A stretch of 27,852 bases of DNA from a virus. Below, piece after piece: positions 1 to 17,363 of this stretch. How positions within the stretch are numbered: the first letter of the stretch is position 1; each line of letters opens with the position of its first letter. The translations under genes were made by a program, and so were the position numbers. The notes beneath the pieces were generated by a model. It was not told where the DNA came from. It was given only the letters and a program-made list of their open reading frames with translations, and made no database searches. The stretch spans positions 1-27,852 of IMG/VR virus record IMGVR_UViG_3300031974_001935; one strand, given 5' to 3'.

Positions 1-1178
1 CCGACTTCTTTTAAATATGTTTCTTTCATTTTATCCCAACTCATACCAATAGCATCTAAGTAAAATAGATTCTCTGGCTTCAACCTTCCCTCTGAATGTA
101 GCTTGGTGTACCTTTTGATAGCTTTCTTCTTCCACCACTTACTAATATAATCTACACCCTCTTCGAACTTTTGTTTCATCTTCAGTTCGTCTTCAGATAT
201 TTCTGACCTAAGAAACTCAGCACCATTCTCATACATCATAGCAAGATATACACCTCTCTTAAACCCATGATGATATTCAGATTGTTTGATACCACACTCT
301 TTGAAAATCATACCGAGAATTCTTTGTTTTACGCCCGATACAGGCCCCTCAATACCTTCCTTCTGAGTTGTTTGTCGTTCATACTCTTCTGACTGATTCT
401 CTTTAATCCAATCGTGCCACAATTCATATATTGAGTCATCAGGTTTGATTGATATCTTACCTGCTGATTCACCCAATGTTTTGAAATGTGGTATTCCATT
501 GTATTGGGAGTGAATACCATATAATGATGTAGTACCAACTGCTACAAGAGTTTGTCCATACTTCCGTTTCCAAAACTCTCTTACTTCTGGCACCGTAGTC
601 ATCATAGCAACCAATTTACCACCTAAGAAGTTATAACCCAATGGTTGGGTACATACGATCGTAGATGCTATTGTTGTATGATTGAGTTTTCCATCTTTGA
701 ATTTATTGTCCTTACTCCACCCAATGTAGTTATCTCTAACTGCCATTGATGTTACATCAGATGCAAGTGATATCTGACCTAAGAGTTTACCACTAACCCT
801 GTCCTTAACATTAATCTTAACATTACGACCAGGATTAGCAGTAAAAGACATTGTATGAATCATTTTTCGGATGTGAGTCCACTTTGTGCTGTCTTTAGTA
901 TCCTCTACGATTTCAACATAAGGTTCTAACTCCTCAATCTCTTTGATAGTTTGTTCCAAATTGTTGATATCAGTAGGACTCCATTGAACATCATACATAG
1001 AGGCAATCTGAGATTTATCTCTAATCATTGATGGTTCTTGTAGCTCTACCCACTTCTTATATAGTGTCTGTTCTTCAACTGACATTGAAGACAGATAATC
1101 CATATTTTCGATTAACGCCTTCTTTTGTGTTTCAAAATCAAACACAGGCTTTTGTGGTTCAGCATCCCAAAAATTCAT
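1..1178 (-). CDS. DUF4338/DruA-like protein, 3' end cut by window edge
   Basis: The frame is open from an ATG at 1178 to the left edge, giving 392 codons without a stop, so the C-terminus is missing. About residues 130-190 hold the pattern GKLLGQISLAS, then AVRDNYIGWS, then a segment around QPLGYNFLGG. This matches my recollection of the DUF4338 family, where a 'LLG...A...RD..IGW' block is the hallmark; the family includes DruA of the Druantia anti-phage system. The biochemical role of the family is not well established. It starts 7 bases after the clamp stop codon, so it is probably co-transcribed with the clamp from the promoter at 1913-1943. Its first five residues, MNFWD, are the same as those of the glycosyltransferase at 4461-5594. 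A role in DNA modification or in countering host defence is inference. Confidence 0.6.
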   Translation of the reverse strand, partial: MNFWDAEPQKPVFDFETQKKALIENMDYLSSMSVEEQTLYKKWVELQEPSMIRDKSQIASMYDVQWSPTDINNLEQTIKEIEELEPYVEIVEDTKDSTKWTHIRKMIHTMSFTANPGRNVKINVKDRVSGKLLGQISLASDVTSMAVRDNYIGWSKDNKFKDGKLNHTTIASTIVCTQPLGYNFLGGKLVAMMTTVPEVREFWKRKYGQTLVAVGTTSLYGIHSQYNGIPHFKTLGESAGKISIKPDDSIYELWHDWIKENQSEEYERQTTQKEGIEGPVSGVKQRILGMIFKECGIKQSEYHHGFKRGVYLAMMYENGAEFLRSEISEDELKMKQKFEEGVDYISKWWKKKAIKRYTKLHSEGRLKPENLFYLDAIGMSWDKMKETYLKEV

Positions 1179-1185
1179 ACTACCC

Positions 1186-1881
1186 TTATTTTACCTCTAC
1201 GAGATAATAACTACTTTTCAAAGAATCATTCTCAAATTGAATGTGAGATAGTCCTTGTGATGAAATCTTCAAAGTAGCAGCTTTTGAACCTCGGTTTGCA
1301 TTGAGGATTTCTTTAAGGTACTTTGCTGAGAATGAGATGGGTTGGATGTCACCCTCACATTTACAATCAACATTGATAGAGATTCTATTGGTGTTGATAG
1401 TGGAGTAACCCAATACTACCTCACCCTTACCTCCAACACAACTGAATGTGAATGTATCTGACTCATTCAATGCACTCTTTGATTTGATGAATTTAGATGT
1501 AAACTCATCATCCAATGTGATTTCTGCATCAAATGGTGGTACTTGCTTCAAATCAGGAACTACAGGAATAACCGAAAGGTCAGCCAACATATAGTTTACA
1601 GATGTTCCATTATCTGAAAACTTGACATAAGAGTCAGTTGATTCTACATTTACACTTGATTCCAATACACCCAAAAGAGCTTTGAGTTGTGATGTGGTGT
1701 AGATACCGAACTCACCATTTGGGAAATCACCCTCTTCGGAAGTAACACTCCCAAGCAAAGTCTTATCGTCAGAGATAAAACTCACTTTCATTTGGGAATC
1801 CGTTGATTCGATTTTTACTGATTCTACCTCACCACCAAGATTGTATCGGTTGATGAAGTTCTCAATACTACTTTTCTTCAT
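1186..1881 (-). CDS. 45: DNA polymerase sliding clamp (T4 gp45-like)
   Basis: This 231-residue protein is close to the length of T4 gp45 (228). The clamp is a trimeric ring that tethers the replicative polymerase to DNA and in T4 also activates late transcription. Recognisable stretches are FGIYTTSQLKALL, the central YMLADLSVIPVVPDLK, NTNRISINV, ISFSAKYLKEILNANRG and the C-terminal SYYLVEVK. All follow the gp45 pattern as I know it. It is the first gene after the promoter at 1913-1943, with a leader of roughly 25 bases, and is followed by the DruA-like gene. The polymerase it would serve lies immediately upstream. Confidence 0.9.
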   Translation of the reverse strand: MKKSSIENFINRYNLGGEVESVKIESTDSQMKVSFISDDKTLLGSVTSEEGDFPNGEFGIYTTSQLKALLGVLESSVNVESTDSYVKFSDNGTSVNYMLADLSVIPVVPDLKQVPPFDAEITLDDEFTSKFIKSKSALNESDTFTFSCVGGKGEVVLGYSTINTNRISINVDCKCEGDIQPISFSAKYLKEILNANRGSKAATLKISSQGLSHIQFENDSLKSSYYLVEVK

Positions 1882-1944: not shown

Positions 1945-4461
1945 CTAAAACCCAAAAAACTTTGATGCCTTTGCTAAGTTAGGATTTGGCTTCTCCCATG
2001 ACATTGCGTCATAGAAGTCAGTTATTTTGTTGTCTAACTCTTTCTCCCAAATCAAATCATAGTCAATGTATTGTTTTACCAAATCCAATACTTCAGGTGG
2101 GTCGTTGTACCCAGTCAATCCAACCGAACTCAAACCTAATGGATTACTCTTTAGATACACCCACTTAATCTTATCACCATCTTTCATTGGTTCATATTTG
2201 TATGGTACATCATAATATTTGAGTAACTGATTGTATGTGATTGCTGCTTTTACATGAGCGGGTGTTCCTTTTACAAACTCACCCAATGATTGTTTTTTGA
2301 ACACATACTTACTCATATCTTTGACTGCTGAGTTCTTTGCAATATCCACAAAGTGTTGTTCTGCCATAGTGTCTTTGTAGTTCAAAATCTTATCATCAAT
2401 GTTCTCTTTGGGTTCGTCCTTTAGAATGTCCATCAATACCGTTGACATCACTTCTTTGAAATAAGTTGGGAATGAACTTCGTTTTACATCCAATCCTTTG
2501 ACATCTAACTTATCACAATTTATGGTGTTGTCGTTAATAATCCATTGTGCGTATCTCTTCTTTGATACCCAAAATCCACCTTTGGCAATTGTTTCTTGTT
2601 TGATATCAAATCGATGTGAATCTACATTGAACATCTTTTTTGCCATAGTGTCGTACACCAAATTGATGTGGTCTTGTACCTCTTTAGCTACTGATAGGAT
2701 TGCAGGAATCATCTGTTCATCCGAATTAACATCAATGTTTGGATTCCTAGCTTTTACCAATGGTGCTGCTTCGTAGAATACTGAGTCAGTATCTGTATAT
2801 ACATTATAGTCTGCTTCCTCACCAATGTTCTTAATGTAGTATTGGTTAGCAATCATCTCAGTAGTTTTGATTACAGTTTGACCTGTAAGTGTAACTGCCT
2901 CTGCATTGTCAACATCATAAAATCTGAAAGCAGGTAGTCCTAATACACCATAGAGTGAGTTCAACATAATCTTCTGTACTAATTGGCGTTGAGAATAGAA
3001 CTTATAAAGTTCGTCATCTCCCTCCTTACCATACTTCTTCATTAAGTCTTTGTACTCAACCCTCTTATCAAACCATACATTCAGAATCTCAGGTATCACC
3101 CCAACCTTTTCTTGTGTATAGATTACACCATTTGATGCAACTGAGAAGTTCATCTTAGTGATGAAGTCCATAAACTTATCTTTGTCCATCGGTGGGTATT
3201 GTTTACCATTTGTATCAGTAATAAGATACTCATTGAGTTTACCCTTCATATGGGATTCTGCATTATAACCCTGAACCTTACCCAACTTTGTTTCTGGTGA
3301 AATGTTGATGGTCATAATAATTGATGGATACAGAGATGTTAAGTCCAAATCATACACCCATTTATAAAGACCTGGTTTAGGTTGTTTCACATATGCGCCT
3401 GTAAACTTATCCTCACCATCTGAACCATCTTCTTTCCTATTCCTTCTCAAAGGTCTATCAGGTGCAACCCTACCACTCCTTCTTAGGAATGTCAAAATAG
3501 CACCCTCTAACCATTTTGATGAGAACAGAAAGTCTTCATAGAATACATGACCAGCGTGACAGATTGCTCTAGCCAAATCAATGAACTGAAGTTTCTTATC
3601 CATCTCAACTACCAACTCCACATCCACCAAATTGTACTCAATGAACTTTTCTAAATCATCTCTGAACAATTGGTCTAAGTTACCATCATACTCAACCTTA
3701 CCCCTACCCAATTCCAACTGAGCGATCGTGTCTAATCGGTAGTTTGGATATTCTGTATATGTAAAGTTTTTGAACAATGCAATATAGTCCAATGCGGATA
3801 CACCTGCAATGATGTATCTACTACGATACTGATTCCAATGTACTTTTTTGATGGGTGATAATCTATTAGCAACTGAAGTTCCAAACAATCTTTTCAGTCT
3901 GTTATACAGATAAGTGACATCAAAGAAATCAATGTTCCACCCAGTTATGATAGTGGGACATATCTCCTCCCACTTATTTACAAACGATGTCAACATCCCC
4001 TCTTCGTTTTTAAACGAACGGACTTGTGCTCCTTTGATGGTTTTGTTTATCTCATCACCATCATTTACAACATAAACAAAGTAGTCATTTGTTGCTGAGT
4101 CGTGGAATGCAATTGATGTAATCTCATTTGTAGCTTCATTGGTATCTGGCAGACCTGAGTTCATCTCAACCTCAATATCAAAAGTCATAATCACATGCCC
4201 CTTTGACATTTCATCTGAGTCACCATACTCATCAATCAGAAAACGAGTTACCTCATTAACATCCGATTCGTACAACTTCAGATTGTCTTCCTTTTTCCAA
4301 TAGTTAATCTTCTTTAACCTCTCACCATAGATTGATTCATACGAACCATTTCCATCTCTTACATATGCGTAGTTGCGATACTTCTTTGTAAAGTAACCTT
4401 TCTCATCATCCCAACAATGGATGATACCACCATCTTTCTGCCAATATACATTTTGATACAT
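1945..4461 (-). CDS. 43: Family B replicative DNA polymerase (T4 gp43-like)
   Basis: This 838-residue protein has an intact 3'-5' proofreading exonuclease and polymerase. Exo I is FDIE (D95, E97), Exo II is GWNIDFFD (around 174-181) and Exo III is EYNLVD (around 275-280). Polymerase motif A is DLTSLYPSII (373-382), motif B ends KIMLNSLYG (497-505), motif C is YTDTDS (555-560), and a KKRY motif lies in the thumb-proximal region. The C-terminus KASKFFGF resembles the clamp-binding tail of T4/RB69 gp43. T4 gp43 has 898 residues, so this is slightly shorter. Its ATG overlaps the glycosyltransferase stop as TAATG, which suggests translational coupling. No intron, intein or split is visible. Confidence 0.95.
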   Translation of the reverse strand: MYQNVYWQKDGGIIHCWDDEKGYFTKKYRNYAYVRDGNGSYESIYGERLKKINYWKKEDNLKLYESDVNEVTRFLIDEYGDSDEMSKGHVIMTFDIEVEMNSGLPDTNEATNEITSIAFHDSATNDYFVYVVNDGDEINKTIKGAQVRSFKNEEGMLTSFVNKWEEICPTIITGWNIDFFDVTYLYNRLKRLFGTSVANRLSPIKKVHWNQYRSRYIIAGVSALDYIALFKNFTYTEYPNYRLDTIAQLELGRGKVEYDGNLDQLFRDDLEKFIEYNLVDVELVVEMDKKLQFIDLARAICHAGHVFYEDFLFSSKWLEGAILTFLRRSGRVAPDRPLRRNRKEDGSDGEDKFTGAYVKQPKPGLYKWVYDLDLTSLYPSIIMTINISPETKLGKVQGYNAESHMKGKLNEYLITDTNGKQYPPMDKDKFMDFITKMNFSVASNGVIYTQEKVGVIPEILNVWFDKRVEYKDLMKKYGKEGDDELYKFYSQRQLVQKIMLNSLYGVLGLPAFRFYDVDNAEAVTLTGQTVIKTTEMIANQYYIKNIGEEADYNVYTDTDSVFYEAAPLVKARNPNIDVNSDEQMIPAILSVAKEVQDHINLVYDTMAKKMFNVDSHRFDIKQETIAKGGFWVSKKRYAQWIINDNTINCDKLDVKGLDVKRSSFPTYFKEVMSTVLMDILKDEPKENIDDKILNYKDTMAEQHFVDIAKNSAVKDMSKYVFKKQSLGEFVKGTPAHVKAAITYNQLLKYYDVPYKYEPMKDGDKIKWVYLKSNPLGLSSVGLTGYNDPPEVLDLVKQYIDYDLIWEKELDNKITDFYDAMSWEKPNPNLAKASKFFGF

Positions 4462-5594
4462 TAAGCCATTAATTGTTTATGTAGTTCTTTAATCATTTTA
4501 TCTTCATTCAAAGATAGTTCCACAGCCCTTTCGGTTGACATACTGTCTCTTTCTTGTCTGAATGTGTCATCATCCAACATTTTATCCAAATACTTGAAGA
4601 ACTCTTTTTTGTATTTGAAGAACATCCCATTGGGGTCAATCTCGTGATAACAATCAGATTCTTGCCAAATCATTGGTGTACCATTCATCATACAATCAGT
4701 ACCACTTACCGACCAACCATAGTTGGTTTGTCTCATCTGAACACCTACCTTACAATTCTGAAGTCGTTGGTAGTATTCGTGTTTTGGTACTTTTGTATTA
4801 TCAATCCAAGAATGTGGAGCATCACCCTTTAGTTGTGGAATCCAAACCGTAAAATCTTGTCGTTGAGTACGATACTCTTCCATCAGTTCAATAAACTTTG
4901 GATATCCTTTGTATGCAGCGGCACGATGGTTGAATACAATGATATTATCTTTTGATTCTTTAATACCATCAACAATCTTATCTTGAGGTACACCCAAATT
5001 CCACACTTTAAGAACCCCATCTAACTTCTGAGCAAACTCTTCGTTGAATGTCTCTCGTGCTTCATCCAATACCCTATTCTTTTGGTCTTGAGTATTGAGG
5101 TAACATACATCCATTTGAGATACACCAAGTAGTTCAATAGGTAACCACAACCACTTTGGTTTTCCAGCTCTATTGTCCGGCCCATTACACGATTTCATTT
5201 CCCACCAATGACAATAACCCACAACTTTTGTATCCATTGTCTTTTTATACCTACCCACTTGAACCCAATCTGGCAAATGTGAATAGATTACATCGTAGTC
5301 AATGTCTTTGAGTAGGTTGATAAGTTTAGATGATGGGAATGACCTCTGATTCATCATATCACCAGTAATGTCAATTTGGTGTTGTTTGACATTTGGTAGA
5401 TTCAACTTCTTACTGATTTTACCAGTAGGCATTAGGATATTCCAATAGTAATCACCATAAGAGTCCAATGCTTTGATGTGGTTATGAATGACATCAACGA
5501 ATGAATCCTTATCAATGTTGGAAGAGTTGGTGATATTTGGTATCACCAACACCTTCCGTGAATTGTTGTAATCTATACTATCCCAAAAGTTCAT
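4461..5594 (-). CDS. GT-B glycosyltransferase, GT4-like
   Basis: This 377-residue protein looks like a two-domain GT-B glycosyltransferase. The second domain begins near residue 217 with DNIIVFNHRAAAYKGYPKFIEL, and the donor-sugar loop lies near 294-315 (GWSVSGTDCMMNGTPMIWQE), with the small-residue and acidic pattern of family 4-type enzymes. Substrate is unknown; DNA bases are a reasonable inference because it sits between a ParB-like gene and the DNA polymerase and near two Mom-like genes, but surface glycans cannot be excluded. It overlaps both neighbours by one base (TAATG at each junction). It shares MNFWD at its N-terminus with the DruA-like protein. It does not resemble T4 alpha- or beta-glucosyltransferase by eye. 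Confidence 0.7.
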   Translation of the reverse strand: MNFWDSIDYNNSRKVLVIPNITNSSNIDKDSFVDVIHNHIKALDSYGDYYWNILMPTGKISKKLNLPNVKQHQIDITGDMMNQRSFPSSKLINLLKDIDYDVIYSHLPDWVQVGRYKKTMDTKVVGYCHWWEMKSCNGPDNRAGKPKWLWLPIELLGVSQMDVCYLNTQDQKNRVLDEARETFNEEFAQKLDGVLKVWNLGVPQDKIVDGIKESKDNIIVFNHRAAAYKGYPKFIELMEEYRTQRQDFTVWIPQLKGDAPHSWIDNTKVPKHEYYQRLQNCKVGVQMRQTNYGWSVSGTDCMMNGTPMIWQESDCYHEIDPNGMFFKYKKEFFKYLDKMLDDDTFRQERDSMSTERAVELSLNEDKMIKELHKQLMA

Positions 5595-6493
5595 TAAAGT
5601 GTAGCAAATTTGTGCATTCTACTAATTTGACCCGTAAACCACTTGTTGAATAGGGCTCGGGATTTGCCAGTTTGTTGAGGTGTTGTTTTTATTGATTCAC
5701 ACAAGTAATCAAACATAGCCTTCCATTGGCCAAAATTTTGAAGTTTATTCTTTTGAGTGTGCATCTCAAATACAAAGTTCTCAACCCAATCGTTTTGTAG
5801 TTCAGACCCCAAAACACTTTTTAACTTTACCAACTCACTTAACATATGGTCAACATATGGTCTATCCGAGTCCGGCAATCTGAACTGACCCGTTTTAGTT
5901 GGAGTTCGGTCTTTTTTAGTTCTATTTTTTGGATTACTTGGTTGACCATATCCATCGTAGATACCTACCAAATTACCAACTGATAGACTTGTCTTACTAC
6001 TTGTACGAGAGGTGTATTGGTGAATGTTGTTGGCCATTTCTACATAAATGGGCGATTTCATAACACGAGCGGCACGAACTATCATATCATATAGTGTGTG
6101 GTTTTTACCACCAGTATTCAACTCGGTAATAGCGCTGTACATTGCCTCTTCATTATTACCATCAATCCACCACAATACAACACACGGTACAGTTTCATCT
6201 GGGTCATTTGAATTATTCAAGCAATCACCCCTATGGTTTGATTCTGCGATTTTGAATAATTGTACACCTTCCTCGTTAATGAAAGGAGCCACCTTAATAG
6301 CATCCATCCATCCACTATTTTTGATTTTCTCTCCAAGATTGTTGGAGTGATTTTTGTTAAAGTCACGATTTTCTTTCTCTGCTTTAACAATTCTTGCTAG
6401 AGGGATATCCATAATAATCCCTTTCTTTACACCACTTCTAAAATACATTTGTGGTCTTGAGTAATCCGAAATCTTAAACGAAATCTTTTTCAT
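5594..6493 (-). CDS. ParB-like nuclease-domain protein
   Basis: This 299-residue protein has an N-terminal region (about 25-110) with the ParB/sulfiredoxin layout: a helix-entry segment IPLARIVKAEKENRDFNKNH, then LGEKIKNSGWMDAIKV and the motif ESNHRGDCL (84-92), equivalent to the G-x-HR element of ParB-type domains. The remaining two thirds are not recognised; a basic stretch rich in K, R and T follows at about 190-205. ParB-like domains in phages occur in partition, nuclease and DNA-modification proteins. It is the first gene of a tightly coupled set with the glycosyltransferase and DNA polymerase, so a role acting on DNA is likely, but the exact reaction is unknown. Confidence 0.6.
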   Translation of the reverse strand: MKKISFKISDYSRPQMYFRSGVKKGIIMDIPLARIVKAEKENRDFNKNHSNNLGEKIKNSGWMDAIKVAPFINEEGVQLFKIAESNHRGDCLNNSNDPDETVPCVVLWWIDGNNEEAMYSAITELNTGGKNHTLYDMIVRAARVMKSPIYVEMANNIHQYTSRTSSKTSLSVGNLVGIYDGYGQPSNPKNRTKKDRTPTKTGQFRLPDSDRPYVDHMLSELVKLKSVLGSELQNDWVENFVFEMHTQKNKLQNFGQWKAMFDYLCESIKTTPQQTGKSRALFNKWFTGQISRMHKFATL

Positions 6494-6599: not shown

Positions 6600-7403
6600 T
6601 TACCAAAAATTTATCTCATTAGATTCTTCTGGTGGATATGCATCGTGTCTAATAACATCGGTATTATAATCTCTTGCTGATTTAGGGTAAGGTTTGATTT
6701 CATGCTTCAACCTCTTCATCAAATCTTTCTTTTCTTTTTTATTCTGAGGTAGTAATTGGATATATCTATGTTTTGGTGGTTCTTCTCTTCTCCAAAACTC
6801 TTTGTATCCATCCTTACCTATTTCTCTTTTTAAGTGTTCTAAATTACCACTGCCCCAATTGTTGAATACAGTTCTACTATGAATCCATTGATATGGGTCT
6901 TTTGTAAGTGAGATACCCCAATTAGGCATTAGAGCAATATCAGTATTCAAACCTTGATATATCCAATTGGTTGCCTGATAGATACCTCCTAAGTGTTCTT
7001 GACCATTGTCTGCGTATGATAGTAGAACTTTGATGTTCTTATCGTTTTCCTTAATCCACTTAAATGTCTTAGACAATGCGTTTGATTCGATATTAGAACC
7101 ATACCCATCATCAACATACAAACGAGTCAACTCCAATATATTGTCTTTACTCAAACCCTCACATACTGATGTGGATGCCTTTGCTCCAACAGGGAATCCG
7201 TATATTGCACATCCTATAAGTTGGTGTTGATTACCAAACACATCCACTTCATCAGTCTTATAGTAAATACCCAATGCGTATCTACACATAGTCCAAGCGT
7301 GAGTATAGTGTTTCTTTATGATAATATCTTTAGCGATAGACTTTGCTATTCGTGAAACACTCACTCTACTTACATCACAATATTCTTTACCCTCTACTTT
7401 CAA
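6600..7403 (-). CDS. Mom-like DNA adenine modification protein, copy 2
   Basis: This 267-residue protein resembles phage Mu Mom, a GNAT-fold enzyme that modifies adenine (methylcarbamoylation) to protect DNA from restriction. Family-like stretches are HYTHAW (32-37), LELTRLYVDDGYGSNIES (90-107), LLSYADNGQEHLGGIYQATNW (127-147) and WIHSRTVF. It aligns without gaps over the first 150 residues with the upstream gene at 7387-8145. The start is a TTG at 7403: it gives MKVEGKEYCD, matching the paralogue's MKVEGKSYCD, and the next ATG would delete 38 conserved residues. It overlaps the upstream paralogue by 17 bases. Which base it modifies, and with what group, cannot be read from sequence. Confidence 0.8.
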   Translation of the reverse strand: MKVEGKEYCDVSRVSVSRIAKSIAKDIIIKKHYTHAWTMCRYALGIYYKTDEVDVFGNQHQLIGCAIYGFPVGAKASTSVCEGLSKDNILELTRLYVDDGYGSNIESNALSKTFKWIKENDKNIKVLLSYADNGQEHLGGIYQATNWIYQGLNTDIALMPNWGISLTKDPYQWIHSRTVFNNWGSGNLEHLKREIGKDGYKEFWRREEPPKHRYIQLLPQNKKEKKDLMKRLKHEIKPYPKSARDYNTDVIRHDAYPPEESNEINFW

Positions 7404-8145
7404 TTGGCTCTAATTTATGTATTTCCATTTCAATGTCATCATTTCCTTTTGGATATGGGAATGTTGGGTGTTTTAAACTCTTCAGCAACTTTCTCCGTTC
7501 ACCCCCCTTTAGAAGAATGTAAACATATCGATGTTTACGAGGTTCTTTACGAATCCAAAAAGGTTTATTTACCTGTTCTTGTATTTTCTTAGGGTCATTT
7601 GTTTTGTATTGTGGGAATATAGTTTTACCATGTATCCATCTCCCATCTTCCTCAAACTTAAAACTCCAACTATCGTTGAATCTGAGTTTATTGCCCTGAT
7701 AAATCCAATTCGTTGCTTGGTAGATTGTTCCTGCGTGCCCCTCCTTTGGGTCTGAATATGATATTAGTGCTTTTACCTTTGGAACATTTGTTCTTAACCA
7801 ATCAAATGTTTGTGACAAAAACCAACTTTCAATATTTGAACCATACCCATCGAAAACGAACAATCTGACTAACTCCAACACTTCAGTTCTATCTAAAGTT
7901 TCTGATATGGATTGTCCTGTTAACCTCCCGATCGGGTCACCATAACATGCAACACCTATAAGCTTTTCTGAAGTATTGAAGAACTGATGTGAGTCATCTT
8001 CTATATACAAACCCAATGCGTAAGATACCTTTGTCCATAACCCACTATAGTGGTTATTGATTATCATTTCTTTTGCAACTGATTTGGATACACTCCTTAC
8101 TGATAACTTTGATGTATCACAATACGACTTTCCTTCGACCTTCAC
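7387..8145 (-). CDS. Mom-like DNA adenine modification protein, copy 1
   Basis: This 252-residue paralogue of the next gene is also Mom-like. It carries HYSGLW (32-37), LELVRLFVFDGYGSNIES (90-107), ALISYSDPKEGHAGTIYQATNW (126-147) and WIHGKTIF; the spacing from residue 1 to 150 is identical to copy 2, while the C-terminal part differs more. The start is GTG at 8145, overlapping the stop of the upstream HTH gene as TAGTG. Two Mom-like genes side by side suggest duplication followed by divergence in substrate, or a heterodimer. Both use rare start codons and coupled starts, which would keep expression low. Transcription is probably from 8772-8802. Confidence 0.8.
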   Translation of the reverse strand: MKVEGKSYCDTSKLSVRSVSKSVAKEMIINNHYSGLWTKVSYALGLYIEDDSHQFFNTSEKLIGVACYGDPIGRLTGQSISETLDRTEVLELVRLFVFDGYGSNIESWFLSQTFDWLRTNVPKVKALISYSDPKEGHAGTIYQATNWIYQGNKLRFNDSWSFKFEEDGRWIHGKTIFPQYKTNDPKKIQEQVNKPFWIRKEPRKHRYVYILLKGGERRKLLKSLKHPTFPYPKGNDDIEMEIHKLEPIESRG

Positions 8146-16356: not shown

Positions 16357-16659
16357 TTAAAGTCCGTATGAACGAGGTTTACTTTCAATACGTTCAACTA
16401 ACTTAATAGCTTCTAACAAACCCTCAGAATATCCCTTTCTATCTTCTTCTGATATTTTTTTTAGGTTATTGGGTTTATTGAAAGCCTTTAACTCAGCCAA
16501 TATAGTACGAGACATTCTGTTCACCACACTACGTTCTGCTTTCTCAATATCAGACCTATCATAAGTATATGAACCATCCCAACTTTTTGAGAACTCTTTT
16601 AAAGACCTCATCTTTTTGATGTTCTCTATAAATAATTTTCTATTTTGTTTGATAGACAT
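16357..16659 (-). CDS. Small protein with SIKQNR N-terminal module, copy 3
   Basis: This 100-residue protein has no recognised function. Its first residues MSIKQNRKLFIENIKKMR match the two genes upstream, after which the sequence is unrelated to them. The module ends in SLKE, an L-x-E pattern like a T4 prohead-protease site. The rest is charged and mostly helical in character (for example EEDRKGYSEGLLEAIKLVERIE). A short AGGA lies before the ATG. It is the last gene of its unit and is followed by the gp32 promoter. A head-internal protein injected with the DNA is one possibility, by analogy with the T4 internal proteins. Confidence 0.7.
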   Translation of the reverse strand: MSIKQNRKLFIENIKKMRSLKEFSKSWDGSYTYDRSDIEKAERSVVNRMSRTILAELKAFNKPNNLKKISEEDRKGYSEGLLEAIKLVERIESKPRSYGL

Positions 16660-16666
16660 AATAATC

Positions 16667-16993
16667 CTATTTGATATTCTTTTTAACCCACTTATCTACA
16701 ATATCAAAAACTGTAGCAAACATAGGATCTTTATCGTGTCTTAACCCTTGAGCCTGCCAGTTTCTTTTGAGAGTATAGTAGACCTCATTACGGTCATAAT
16801 ATCCATCGTCATAATATTGATCCTTAATGTCCTCAATTGCAGCATCAGCTGCTTTCTTCGCCATTTTCTTTGTATTACCAGTTGCTATAGCAAATGCTTT
16901 AGCATATTGTTTAGCGAAATCATCTTCACTTAGTTGAGTTCTTACCTTTTTGATATTCTCAACCATCAAGTCTCTATTTTGTTTTATAGACAT
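16667..16993 (-). CDS. Small protein with SIKQNR N-terminal module, copy 2
   Basis: This 108-residue protein is of unknown function. An extra codon to a TTG at 16996 is open, but ATG at 16993 follows AGGAGA and matches its paralogues. The first 24 codons are almost identical in DNA to those of the gene at 17007-17363 (three differences over 71 bases), then the sequences part completely. The body is rich in A, K, D and Y, including a tyrosine/aspartate-rich stretch QYYDDGYYDRNEVYY. The module ends QLSE followed by D, a possible protease site. Confidence 0.75.
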   Translation of the reverse strand: MSIKQNRDLMVENIKKVRTQLSEDDFAKQYAKAFAIATGNTKKMAKKAADAAIEDIKDQYYDDGYYDRNEVYYTLKRNWQAQGLRHDKDPMFATVFDIVDKWVKKNIK

Positions 16994-17363
16994 CAAAATC
17001 TCCTATTTAAATAGAATTTACTTTCTCTATTTTCTTAGTTATGTTTACTATGTATCGTATTGCAGAGGCTTTGTCATCAAACGTATTATAATCATTTCCT
17101 GGTTCGAATACTACATATATGTGCCACCTTCGCGAAAATGAATTTTGTTTTATGTGAATTTGTTCTGCATTTCCATATTGATTTTCAAAACTAAGCTCGT
17201 TACCTCTTGTATCTTCTAAACTATAATGATACTTTTTTAATACTTTTTCAAAGTCTTTTTGATCGCCACGACTTATCGGGGCCCATCGGTTGTCTTCACT
17301 TAGTTGAGTTCTTACCTTTTTGATATTCTCAACCATCAGGTCTCTATTTTGTTTGATGGACAT
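16923..17363 (-). repeat. Duplicated 71-base module at the start of two adjacent genes
   Basis: Positions 17293-17363 and 16923-16993 are the same except at three bases. The match stops abruptly at codon 24, where the two proteins diverge. A more divergent third copy lies at the start of the gene ending at 16659. Confidence 0.9.
17007..17363 (-). CDS. Small protein with SIKQNR N-terminal module, copy 1
   Basis: This 118-residue protein is of unknown function. It begins MSIKQNRDLMVENIKKVR with QLSE at 21-24 counted from the same start; the remaining part (for example RRWHIYVVFEPGNDYNTFDD) shows no similarity to the two following genes. GAGGAGA lies close before the ATG. It is the first gene after the promoter at 17384-17413. 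Three genes with one shared leader module and unrelated bodies suggest that the module is a targeting or binding tag. Confidence 0.75.
   Translation of the reverse strand: MSIKQNRDLMVENIKKVRTQLSEDNRWAPISRGDQKDFEKVLKKYHYSLEDTRGNELSFENQYGNAEQIHIKQNSFSRRWHIYVVFEPGNDYNTFDDKASAIRYIVNITKKIEKVNSI

What the first reader, a model, noticed from the sequence alone, without database searches (positions are those of the whole stretch)
1..1178. Phage relative of the Druantia protein DruA beside the sliding clamp
The truncated gene carries the LLG...AVRDNYIGWS block that I associate with DUF4338, the family of DruA. DruA belongs to a bacterial anti-phage system whose mechanism is unclear. A lytic phage carrying it in its replication module suggests another job for the family: DNA modification, anti-restriction, or a decoy against host Druantia.
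Basis: partly seen in the sequence, partly recalled or inferred. Interest (0 to 1): 0.65.

Follow-up and report, generated by a model that had tools for sequence, protein, structure and literature searches.

The report
Clamp-linked DruA-family protein in T4-like phages
This phage gene really is a distant cousin of DruA, a bacterial anti-phage protein of unknown mechanism; it is predicted to be an acyltransferase-like enzyme, sits inside the phage's own DNA-replication operon, and carries a tail that probably ties it to the sliding clamp, so it most likely decorates new phage DNA rather than defending bacteria.

Summary
Window 3-1178(-) encodes a DruA/DUF4338 protein (Pfam PF14236, E 9.8e-24; PADLOC DruA, E 1.7e-21), complete except for two residues and the stop. 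In 75 distinct loci of this T4-like lineage it lies between sliding clamp (gp45) and clamp loader (gp44); cyanophage relatives lie between gp44 and gp62. Twelve DruA-bearing phage records hold no DruE-type domain and the phage branch is deeply separate from Druantia DruA, so this is not a Druantia system. AlphaFold2 models of the phage protein and of a true Druantia DruA both give a GNAT acyltransferase core; the top-listed structural match for both is phage Mu Mom (Z 10.2 and 9.8, nearly tied with other GNATs). Invariant residues cluster in the expected acyl-CoA cleft; dN/dS is about 0.08, as for the clamp. New here: the disordered N-terminal FWD resembles the polymerase's C-terminal clamp-binding-type tail (FFxF), and a neighbouring Mom enzyme and glycosyltransferase carry similar termini. 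T4 alpha-glucosyltransferase is a precedent for a clamp-bound DNA-modifying enzyme. Best reading: a clamp-docked, replication-coupled DNA-modifying acyltransferase (inferred, about 0.45). The decoy idea has little support. Cyanophage DruA-like proteins were already published; the clamp link seems new.

The parts
3..1178 (-). DruA-family (DUF4338) gene, 392 of about 394 aa; last 2 codons and stop lie outside the window
   Evidence: Pfam PF14236 E 9.8e-24; PADLOC DruA E 1.7e-21; C-termini of relatives
1164..1172 (-). N-terminal FWD motif (residues 3-5), putative sliding-clamp-binding tail
   Evidence: Conserved M-x-FW[DE], or FFDE in a deep branch, in nearly all of 149 relatives; residues 1-3 pLDDT under 50 and block 1-10 mean 55, i.e. 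disordered
207..929 (-). GNAT-fold core (residues about 84-324)
   Evidence: AF2 model pLDDT 89.3, pTM 0.84; Foldseek top hits are GNATs; VIA-align Mom 8bv8 Z 10.2 over model residues 79-324
630..647 (-). QPLGYN (residues 178-183), P-loop-like segment at strand 4 / helix 3, followed by invariant GGKL
   Evidence: Q178, P179, G181, N183, G187, K188, L189 invariant in 64 phage sequences
516..533 (-). TTSLYG (residues 216-221), end of strand 5, second wall of the presumed acyl-CoA cleft
   Evidence: T216, T217, L219, Y220, G221 invariant; 15 of 26 invariant columns fall in 39 residues around the two motifs, p 2e-10
1186..1881 (-). Sliding clamp (gp45/PCNA-like)
   Evidence: Weak PCNA_C match; synteny with annotated gp43-gp45-gp44-gp62 blocks
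1948..1959 (-). FFGF at the polymerase C-terminus, position and type of the T4 clamp-binding motif
   Evidence: [QKE]FFxF at or within three residues of the pol C-terminus in essentially all 110 sequences; Mel-JY01 pol ends KFFNFK
1945..4461 (-). Family B DNA polymerase (gp43)
   Evidence: 49.5% identical to PolB of Microcystis phage Mel-JY01
4461..5594 (-). Glycosyltransferase-like gene with N-terminal MNFWD
   Evidence: Sub-threshold Pfam GT4/GT1 matches; terminal motif conserved
6600..7403 (-). Mom-family protein 2; C-terminus ...NEINFW
   Evidence: PF25680 E 4.4e-45; FW at the C-terminus in 27 of 28 relatives
7387..8145 (-). Mom-family protein 1, no FW tail
   Evidence: PF25680 E 1.8e-44; matches Mu Mom 8bv8 E 2.5e-12

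Best explanation
The gene encodes a GNAT-fold enzyme of the DruA family that works for the phage. A short disordered N-terminal FWD tail docks it on the phage sliding clamp, next to polymerase, a Mom-family enzyme and a glycosyltransferase that carry the same kind of tail. Tethered behind the fork, it uses an acyl-CoA (or similar donor) to modify bases of newly made phage DNA, which would protect the DNA from host nucleases. Shown by computation: family, fold, conserved cleft, operon position, purifying selection, shared terminal motif. Inferred: that the motif binds the clamp, that the enzyme is active, and that its substrate is DNA.
For: Family. Fold: AF2 model with GNAT hits; Mom 8bv8 is the top-listed VIA match for the phage protein (Z 10.2, 166 aligned, 3.6 A) and for a true Druantia DruA (Z 9.8, 183 aligned, 4.2 A). 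Active-site-like conservation across lineages about 25% identical. Clamp operon: 75 distinct loci gp45-druA-gp44 and 44 gp44-druA-gp62; the nearest cultured relative has the same block without druA and without Mom. 8 of 9 large contigs of this lineage with DruA also encode Mom. Terminal F[FW] motif on DruA, GT, Mom2 and pol. Precedents: T4 clamp-binding motifs are short hydrophobic and acidic C-termini (PMC2988020; PMC7892883); T4 alpha-GT, a DNA-modifying enzyme, binds gp45 (PMC13216743). DUF4338 has been called a GNAT (PMC10853773). ParB_N-HTH-DruA fusions in marine bacteria recall ParB_N-methyltransferase proteins (own knowledge); that region weakly matches a type II methyltransferase model (E 0.0014).
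Against: Mom's lead over other GNATs is under 1 Z unit for both models, i.e. a tie, and profile-profile comparison with Mom is weak (1.7% and 13% probability). Mom's serine motif NxES is absent; a glycine sits there. The P-loop fits the GNAT consensus except for its last residue (N for G/A). Both pelagiphages and one of two cyanophages tested lack Mom, and pelagiphage and cyanophage DruA lack the FWD tail; pelagiphage druA is not adjacent to the clamp. No modified base has been measured. In T4 the clamp contact did not explain the extent of glucosylation (PMC13216743).
Confidence: 0.45

Rival explanations
1. A clamp-docked GNAT that acylates proteins (replisome, RNA polymerase or host factors) rather than DNA.
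For: Most close structural neighbours besides Mom modify proteins or small molecules. Phages are known to use GNATs on host RNA polymerase (Rac; PMC7824862). Clamp-operon position fits.
Against: Company of Mom and a glycosyltransferase with the same tail; ParB_N-HTH fusions point to DNA.
Confidence: 0.22
2. A non-catalytic replisome accessory factor that uses the old GNAT fold to bind DNA or the clamp.
For: Operon position and selection as strong as on the clamp; Mom's serine is absent; P-loop imperfect.
Against: 15 of 26 invariant residues lie in the presumed acyl-CoA cleft and several are shared with Druantia DruA.
Confidence: 0.18
3. A decoy or inhibitor of host Druantia type I.
For: Homology to DruA.
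Against: Separate deep branch, about 20-25% identity, conserved cleft, dN/dS about 0.08, fixed place in the replication operon, clamp-motif-like tail.
Confidence: 0.06
4. A working defence component carried against other phages (DruA acting in a mini-Druantia).
For: DruA belongs to Druantia in bacteria; Druantia-type loci show helicases nearby.
Against: No DruE-type MZB domain (PF09369) in 12 DruA-bearing phage records, while control genomes ring; replisome neighbours.
Confidence: 0.04

Closest known systems
DruA of Druantia type I (PF14236, PADLOC DruA)
   Same: Homologous core: GGK motif, RDxxIGW block, T and Y of strand 5/helix 4, GNAT fold in both AF2 models
   Different: No DruE in the records tested; QPxGxN instead of PPYNxLL before GGK; different N-terminal region; separate clade; phage replication operon
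DruA-like proteins of Synechococcus phages (Phold paper PMC12774648; PHROG 19197)
   Same: Same phage-type clade; already reported as structurally DruA-like (TM 0.73); sit between gp44 and gp62
   Different: No N-terminal FWD tail; different place in the clamp operon; about 25% identical
Mom of phage Mu (PF25680, PDB 8bv8)
   Same: GNAT fold; top-listed structural match; true Mom genes lie 5-7 kb away in the window
   Different: No significant sequence or profile match; lacks the NxES motif
T4 alpha-glucosyltransferase docked on gp45
   Same: Precedent for a phage DNA-modifying enzyme bound to the sliding clamp (PMC13216743)
   Different: Unrelated enzyme family; motif identity with FWD not tested

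Membership tests
DruA / DUF4338 (PF14236) | Profile match above the curated cut-off | tested here: met
   84.4 bits against 27
DruA / DUF4338 (PF14236) | Conserved core residues (R of RDxxIGW, P...GGK, T, G, Y, R) | tested here: met
   Invariant columns shared with Druantia DruA
Druantia defence system | DruE helicase (MZB/DUF1998) with DruA | tested here: not met
   0 of 12 DruA-bearing phage records, control rings in 8 of 14 genomes
GNAT superfamily | GNAT fold | tested here: met
   AF2 model, Foldseek and VIA matches; predicted model only, and no Foldseek E under 0.001
GNAT superfamily | Q/RxxGxG/A acyl-CoA motif | tested here: inconclusive
   QPLGYN fits except for the last position
GNAT superfamily | Acyl-CoA-dependent activity | not testable with these tools
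   Needs biochemistry
Mom (PF25680) | Sequence profile match | tested here: not met
   No PF25680 hit at E up to 1; hhalign 1.7% and 13%
Mom (PF25680) | NxES motif holding the serine of the S124A inactive mutant | tested here: not met
   NFLG(G) in its place, aligned by eye
T4-type sliding-clamp clients | Short aromatic/acidic motif in a disordered terminus, like the pol C-terminus | tested here: met
   MxFW[DE] against [QKE]FFxF; low-pLDDT tail
T4-type sliding-clamp clients | Physical binding to gp45 | not testable with these tools
   No complex prediction or assay available

The most novel reading that the evidence does not exclude
DruA is at root a Mom-like nucleic-acid acyltransferase. T4-like phages run it as a clamp-docked enzyme that hypermodifies DNA at the fork together with Mom and a glycosyltransferase, all recruited by one shared FW clamp motif, and Druantia I re-uses the same chemistry for defence.
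Probability: 0.27. Interest if true: 0.82.

Novelty: new variant of a known kind. Interest (0 to 1): 0.58.

Why it matters
Nobody has assigned a mechanism to DruA in the papers found here. A phage version fixed in the replication operon, with an enzyme-like cleft and a clamp-motif-like tail, turns the question into simple tests: does it bind the clamp, does it bind acyl-CoA, and does phage DNA lose a modified base without it. If the shared FW tail is right, it also gives a sequence handle for spotting clamp-recruited DNA-modifying enzymes in phage genomes.

Tried and rejected
Sequence search of the PDB with the DruA-like protein: no hit. NCBIfam: nothing significant. Profile-profile DruA against Mom: weak, so close homology to Mom is not claimed. 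The glycosyltransferase has no relative in the phage collection at E 1e-5. YunG-like neighbours of druA occur in only three MAG loci, so they were not pursued. Genome-wide counts of terminal F[FW] alone are only modestly enriched (FW 5 seen against 1.8 expected; F[FW] 19 against 6.4); the argument rests on conservation across relatives and clustering in one module. The gp45-centred search returned only close relatives (9 loci, all with druA), so it does not measure how universal the gene is. Two Pfam calls failed on bad frames, so the helicase genes beside bacterial DruA were identified by annotation and DEAH motifs only. The genome copy of the window is the window itself.

Full report
What is there. 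The minus-strand gene at 3-1178 encodes 392 residues starting at an ATG. Relatives end two residues later, so it is practically complete. It is a DruA/DUF4338 protein by Pfam (E 9.8e-24), PADLOC (E 1.7e-21) and PHROG 19197.

Which phage. The window is a T4-like replication and virion fragment. Its DNA polymerase is 49.5% identical to that of Microcystis phage Mel-JY01 and about 30% to cyanophage polymerases; the host is not known. The record itself is only 27,852 bases.

Position. Counting each distinct DruA protein once, 75 loci of this lineage read gp45-druA-gp44, with many of the others cut by a contig end or carrying a glycosyltransferase insertion; 44 cyanophage-type loci read gp44-druA-gp62; pelagiphage-type loci place it between a deformylase gene and MazG or a peptidase, away from the clamp. 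Mel-JY01 has polymerase, clamp position, gp44, small gene, gp62 in the same order with no druA. So druA is an extra gene placed inside a conserved replisome block, at two different points in two lineages.

Selection. dN/dS of druA is about 0.06-0.11 in nearly all pairs tested (one very close pair 0.28), against 0.09 for the clamp. This is the pattern of a working, conserved gene and not of an arms-race decoy.

Fold. AlphaFold2 on a 64-sequence alignment gave pLDDT 89.3, pTM 0.84. Foldseek against the PDB lists GNAT acyltransferases, though none under E 0.001. VIA-align puts Mu Mom (8bv8) first at Z 10.2, 166 residues, 3.6 A, with other GNATs up to 9.9, a tie. A model of a true Druantia DruA (Chromobacterium L343; PADLOC DruA 722 bits; pLDDT 85.7) again has Mom first, Z 9.8, 183 residues, 4.2 A, next 9.0. 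An earlier paper calls DUF4338 a GNAT domain (PMC10853773). Sequence profiles of DruA and Mom do not match convincingly, so a special kinship with Mom is a lead, not a result.

Active site. Among 64 phage proteins, 26 columns are invariant; 15 lie in the 39 residues at strand 4-helix 3 (QPLGYN..GGKL) and strand 5-helix 4 (TTSLYG..S.Y), where GNATs hold acyl-CoA (hypergeometric p 2e-10). Several are shared with Druantia DruA. Mom's NxES motif, which holds the serine of the inactive S124A mutant, is not kept (alignment by eye).

Relation to Druantia. In a tree of 68 proteins the phage-type sequences separate from Druantia DruA (SH-aLRT 93; long branches make the root and deep joins unsure). Twelve DruA-bearing phage records hold no DruE-type MZB domain while the same search rings in 8 of 14 control genomes. 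It is therefore a DruA-family protein, but not a Druantia system. The phage-type branch also holds solo genes in bacterial bins and ParB_N-HTH-DruA fusions in marine gammaproteobacterial contigs. Viral structure search adds giant-virus relatives.

The terminal motif. In this lineage the polymerase ends in [QKE]FFxF in essentially all 110 sequences. DruA begins M-x-FW[DE] (FFDE in a deep branch) in nearly all of 149; the Mom2 enzyme ends in FW in 27 of 28; and many of the glycosyltransferases begin with FW[DE], or in other branches FFTDP, FFGT or IFDF, while one subgroup (MxVLVIPNYTNF) lacks the tail. Some gp44 proteins begin AFFEE, and an endonuclease ends NFFDF. In the window only four of 31 genes have F[FW] within eight residues of a terminus, and all four are in the first seven genes: DruA, polymerase, glycosyltransferase, Mom2; by hand calculation the chance of that clustering is about 0.001. 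The DruA tail is predicted disordered. T4 clamp clients use short hydrophobic and acidic C-termini that are interchangeable between gp43, gp55 and gp33 (PMC2988020; PMC7892883). T4 alpha-glucosyltransferase, a DNA-modifying enzyme, co-purifies with gp45 (PMC13216743). So a clamp-docking role is likely, but binding is untested.

Mechanism. Best reading: a clamp-docked GNAT that modifies newly replicated phage DNA, working beside Mom and a glycosyltransferase. 8 of 9 large contigs of this lineage with DruA also have Mom, whereas Mel-JY01 has neither; but both pelagiphages and one of two cyanophages tested have DruA without Mom. Rivals are protein acylation, a non-catalytic replisome factor, and, much less likely, a Druantia decoy or a defence role.

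Novelty. DruA-like proteins in Synechococcus phages were reported in the Phold paper (PMC12774648), and DUF4338 is annotated in pelagiphage Mosig. The clamp-operon rule and the shared FW tail were not found in the literature searched, which covers open papers only.

Noticed in passing
window 6600-7403(-) and 7387-8145(-): Two overlapping tandem Mom-family genes (PF25680); only the downstream copy carries the C-terminal FW tail.
   Followed up: partly
L382:5047-6804, L385:1160-2914, L387: ParB_N-HTH-DruA fusion proteins in marine gammaproteobacterial contigs, with no helicase seen nearby; same layout as ParB_N-DNA methyltransferases.
   Followed up: partly
L380:969-3478: Two tandem DruA genes next to a dUTPase and a family B DNA polymerase in a Thermoplasmata bin, probably a virus.
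   Followed up: no
L038 and L040: 6839-7999 and 7989-9212: Tandem DruA paralogues, both with an N-terminal FWD.
   Followed up: no
L389:3023-3550, L376:5209-5568, L388 near 6851: YunG-family gene beside phage-type druA in three bins.
   Followed up: partly
window 5594-6493(-): 299-aa protein with only weak ParB-like matches, between the glycosyltransferase and Mom genes.
   Followed up: no
window 16357-17363(-): Three consecutive small genes starting MSIKQNR(D/K)L..ENIKK, an apparent tandem family sharing an N-terminal segment.
   Followed up: no
BFVD A0A3G4ZXG3, A0A5K0UAJ3, A0A3G4ZRA1: Giant viruses (Faunusvirus, Yasminevirus, Dasosvirus) have proteins structurally close to phage DruA (E 3e-17 to 9e-10).
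   Followed up: no
NC_020484 (Pelagibacter phage HTVC008M) 86116-87258: Its DruA copy lacks a stretch of the C-terminal half that other phages keep; the record also showed a second matching place.
   Followed up: no
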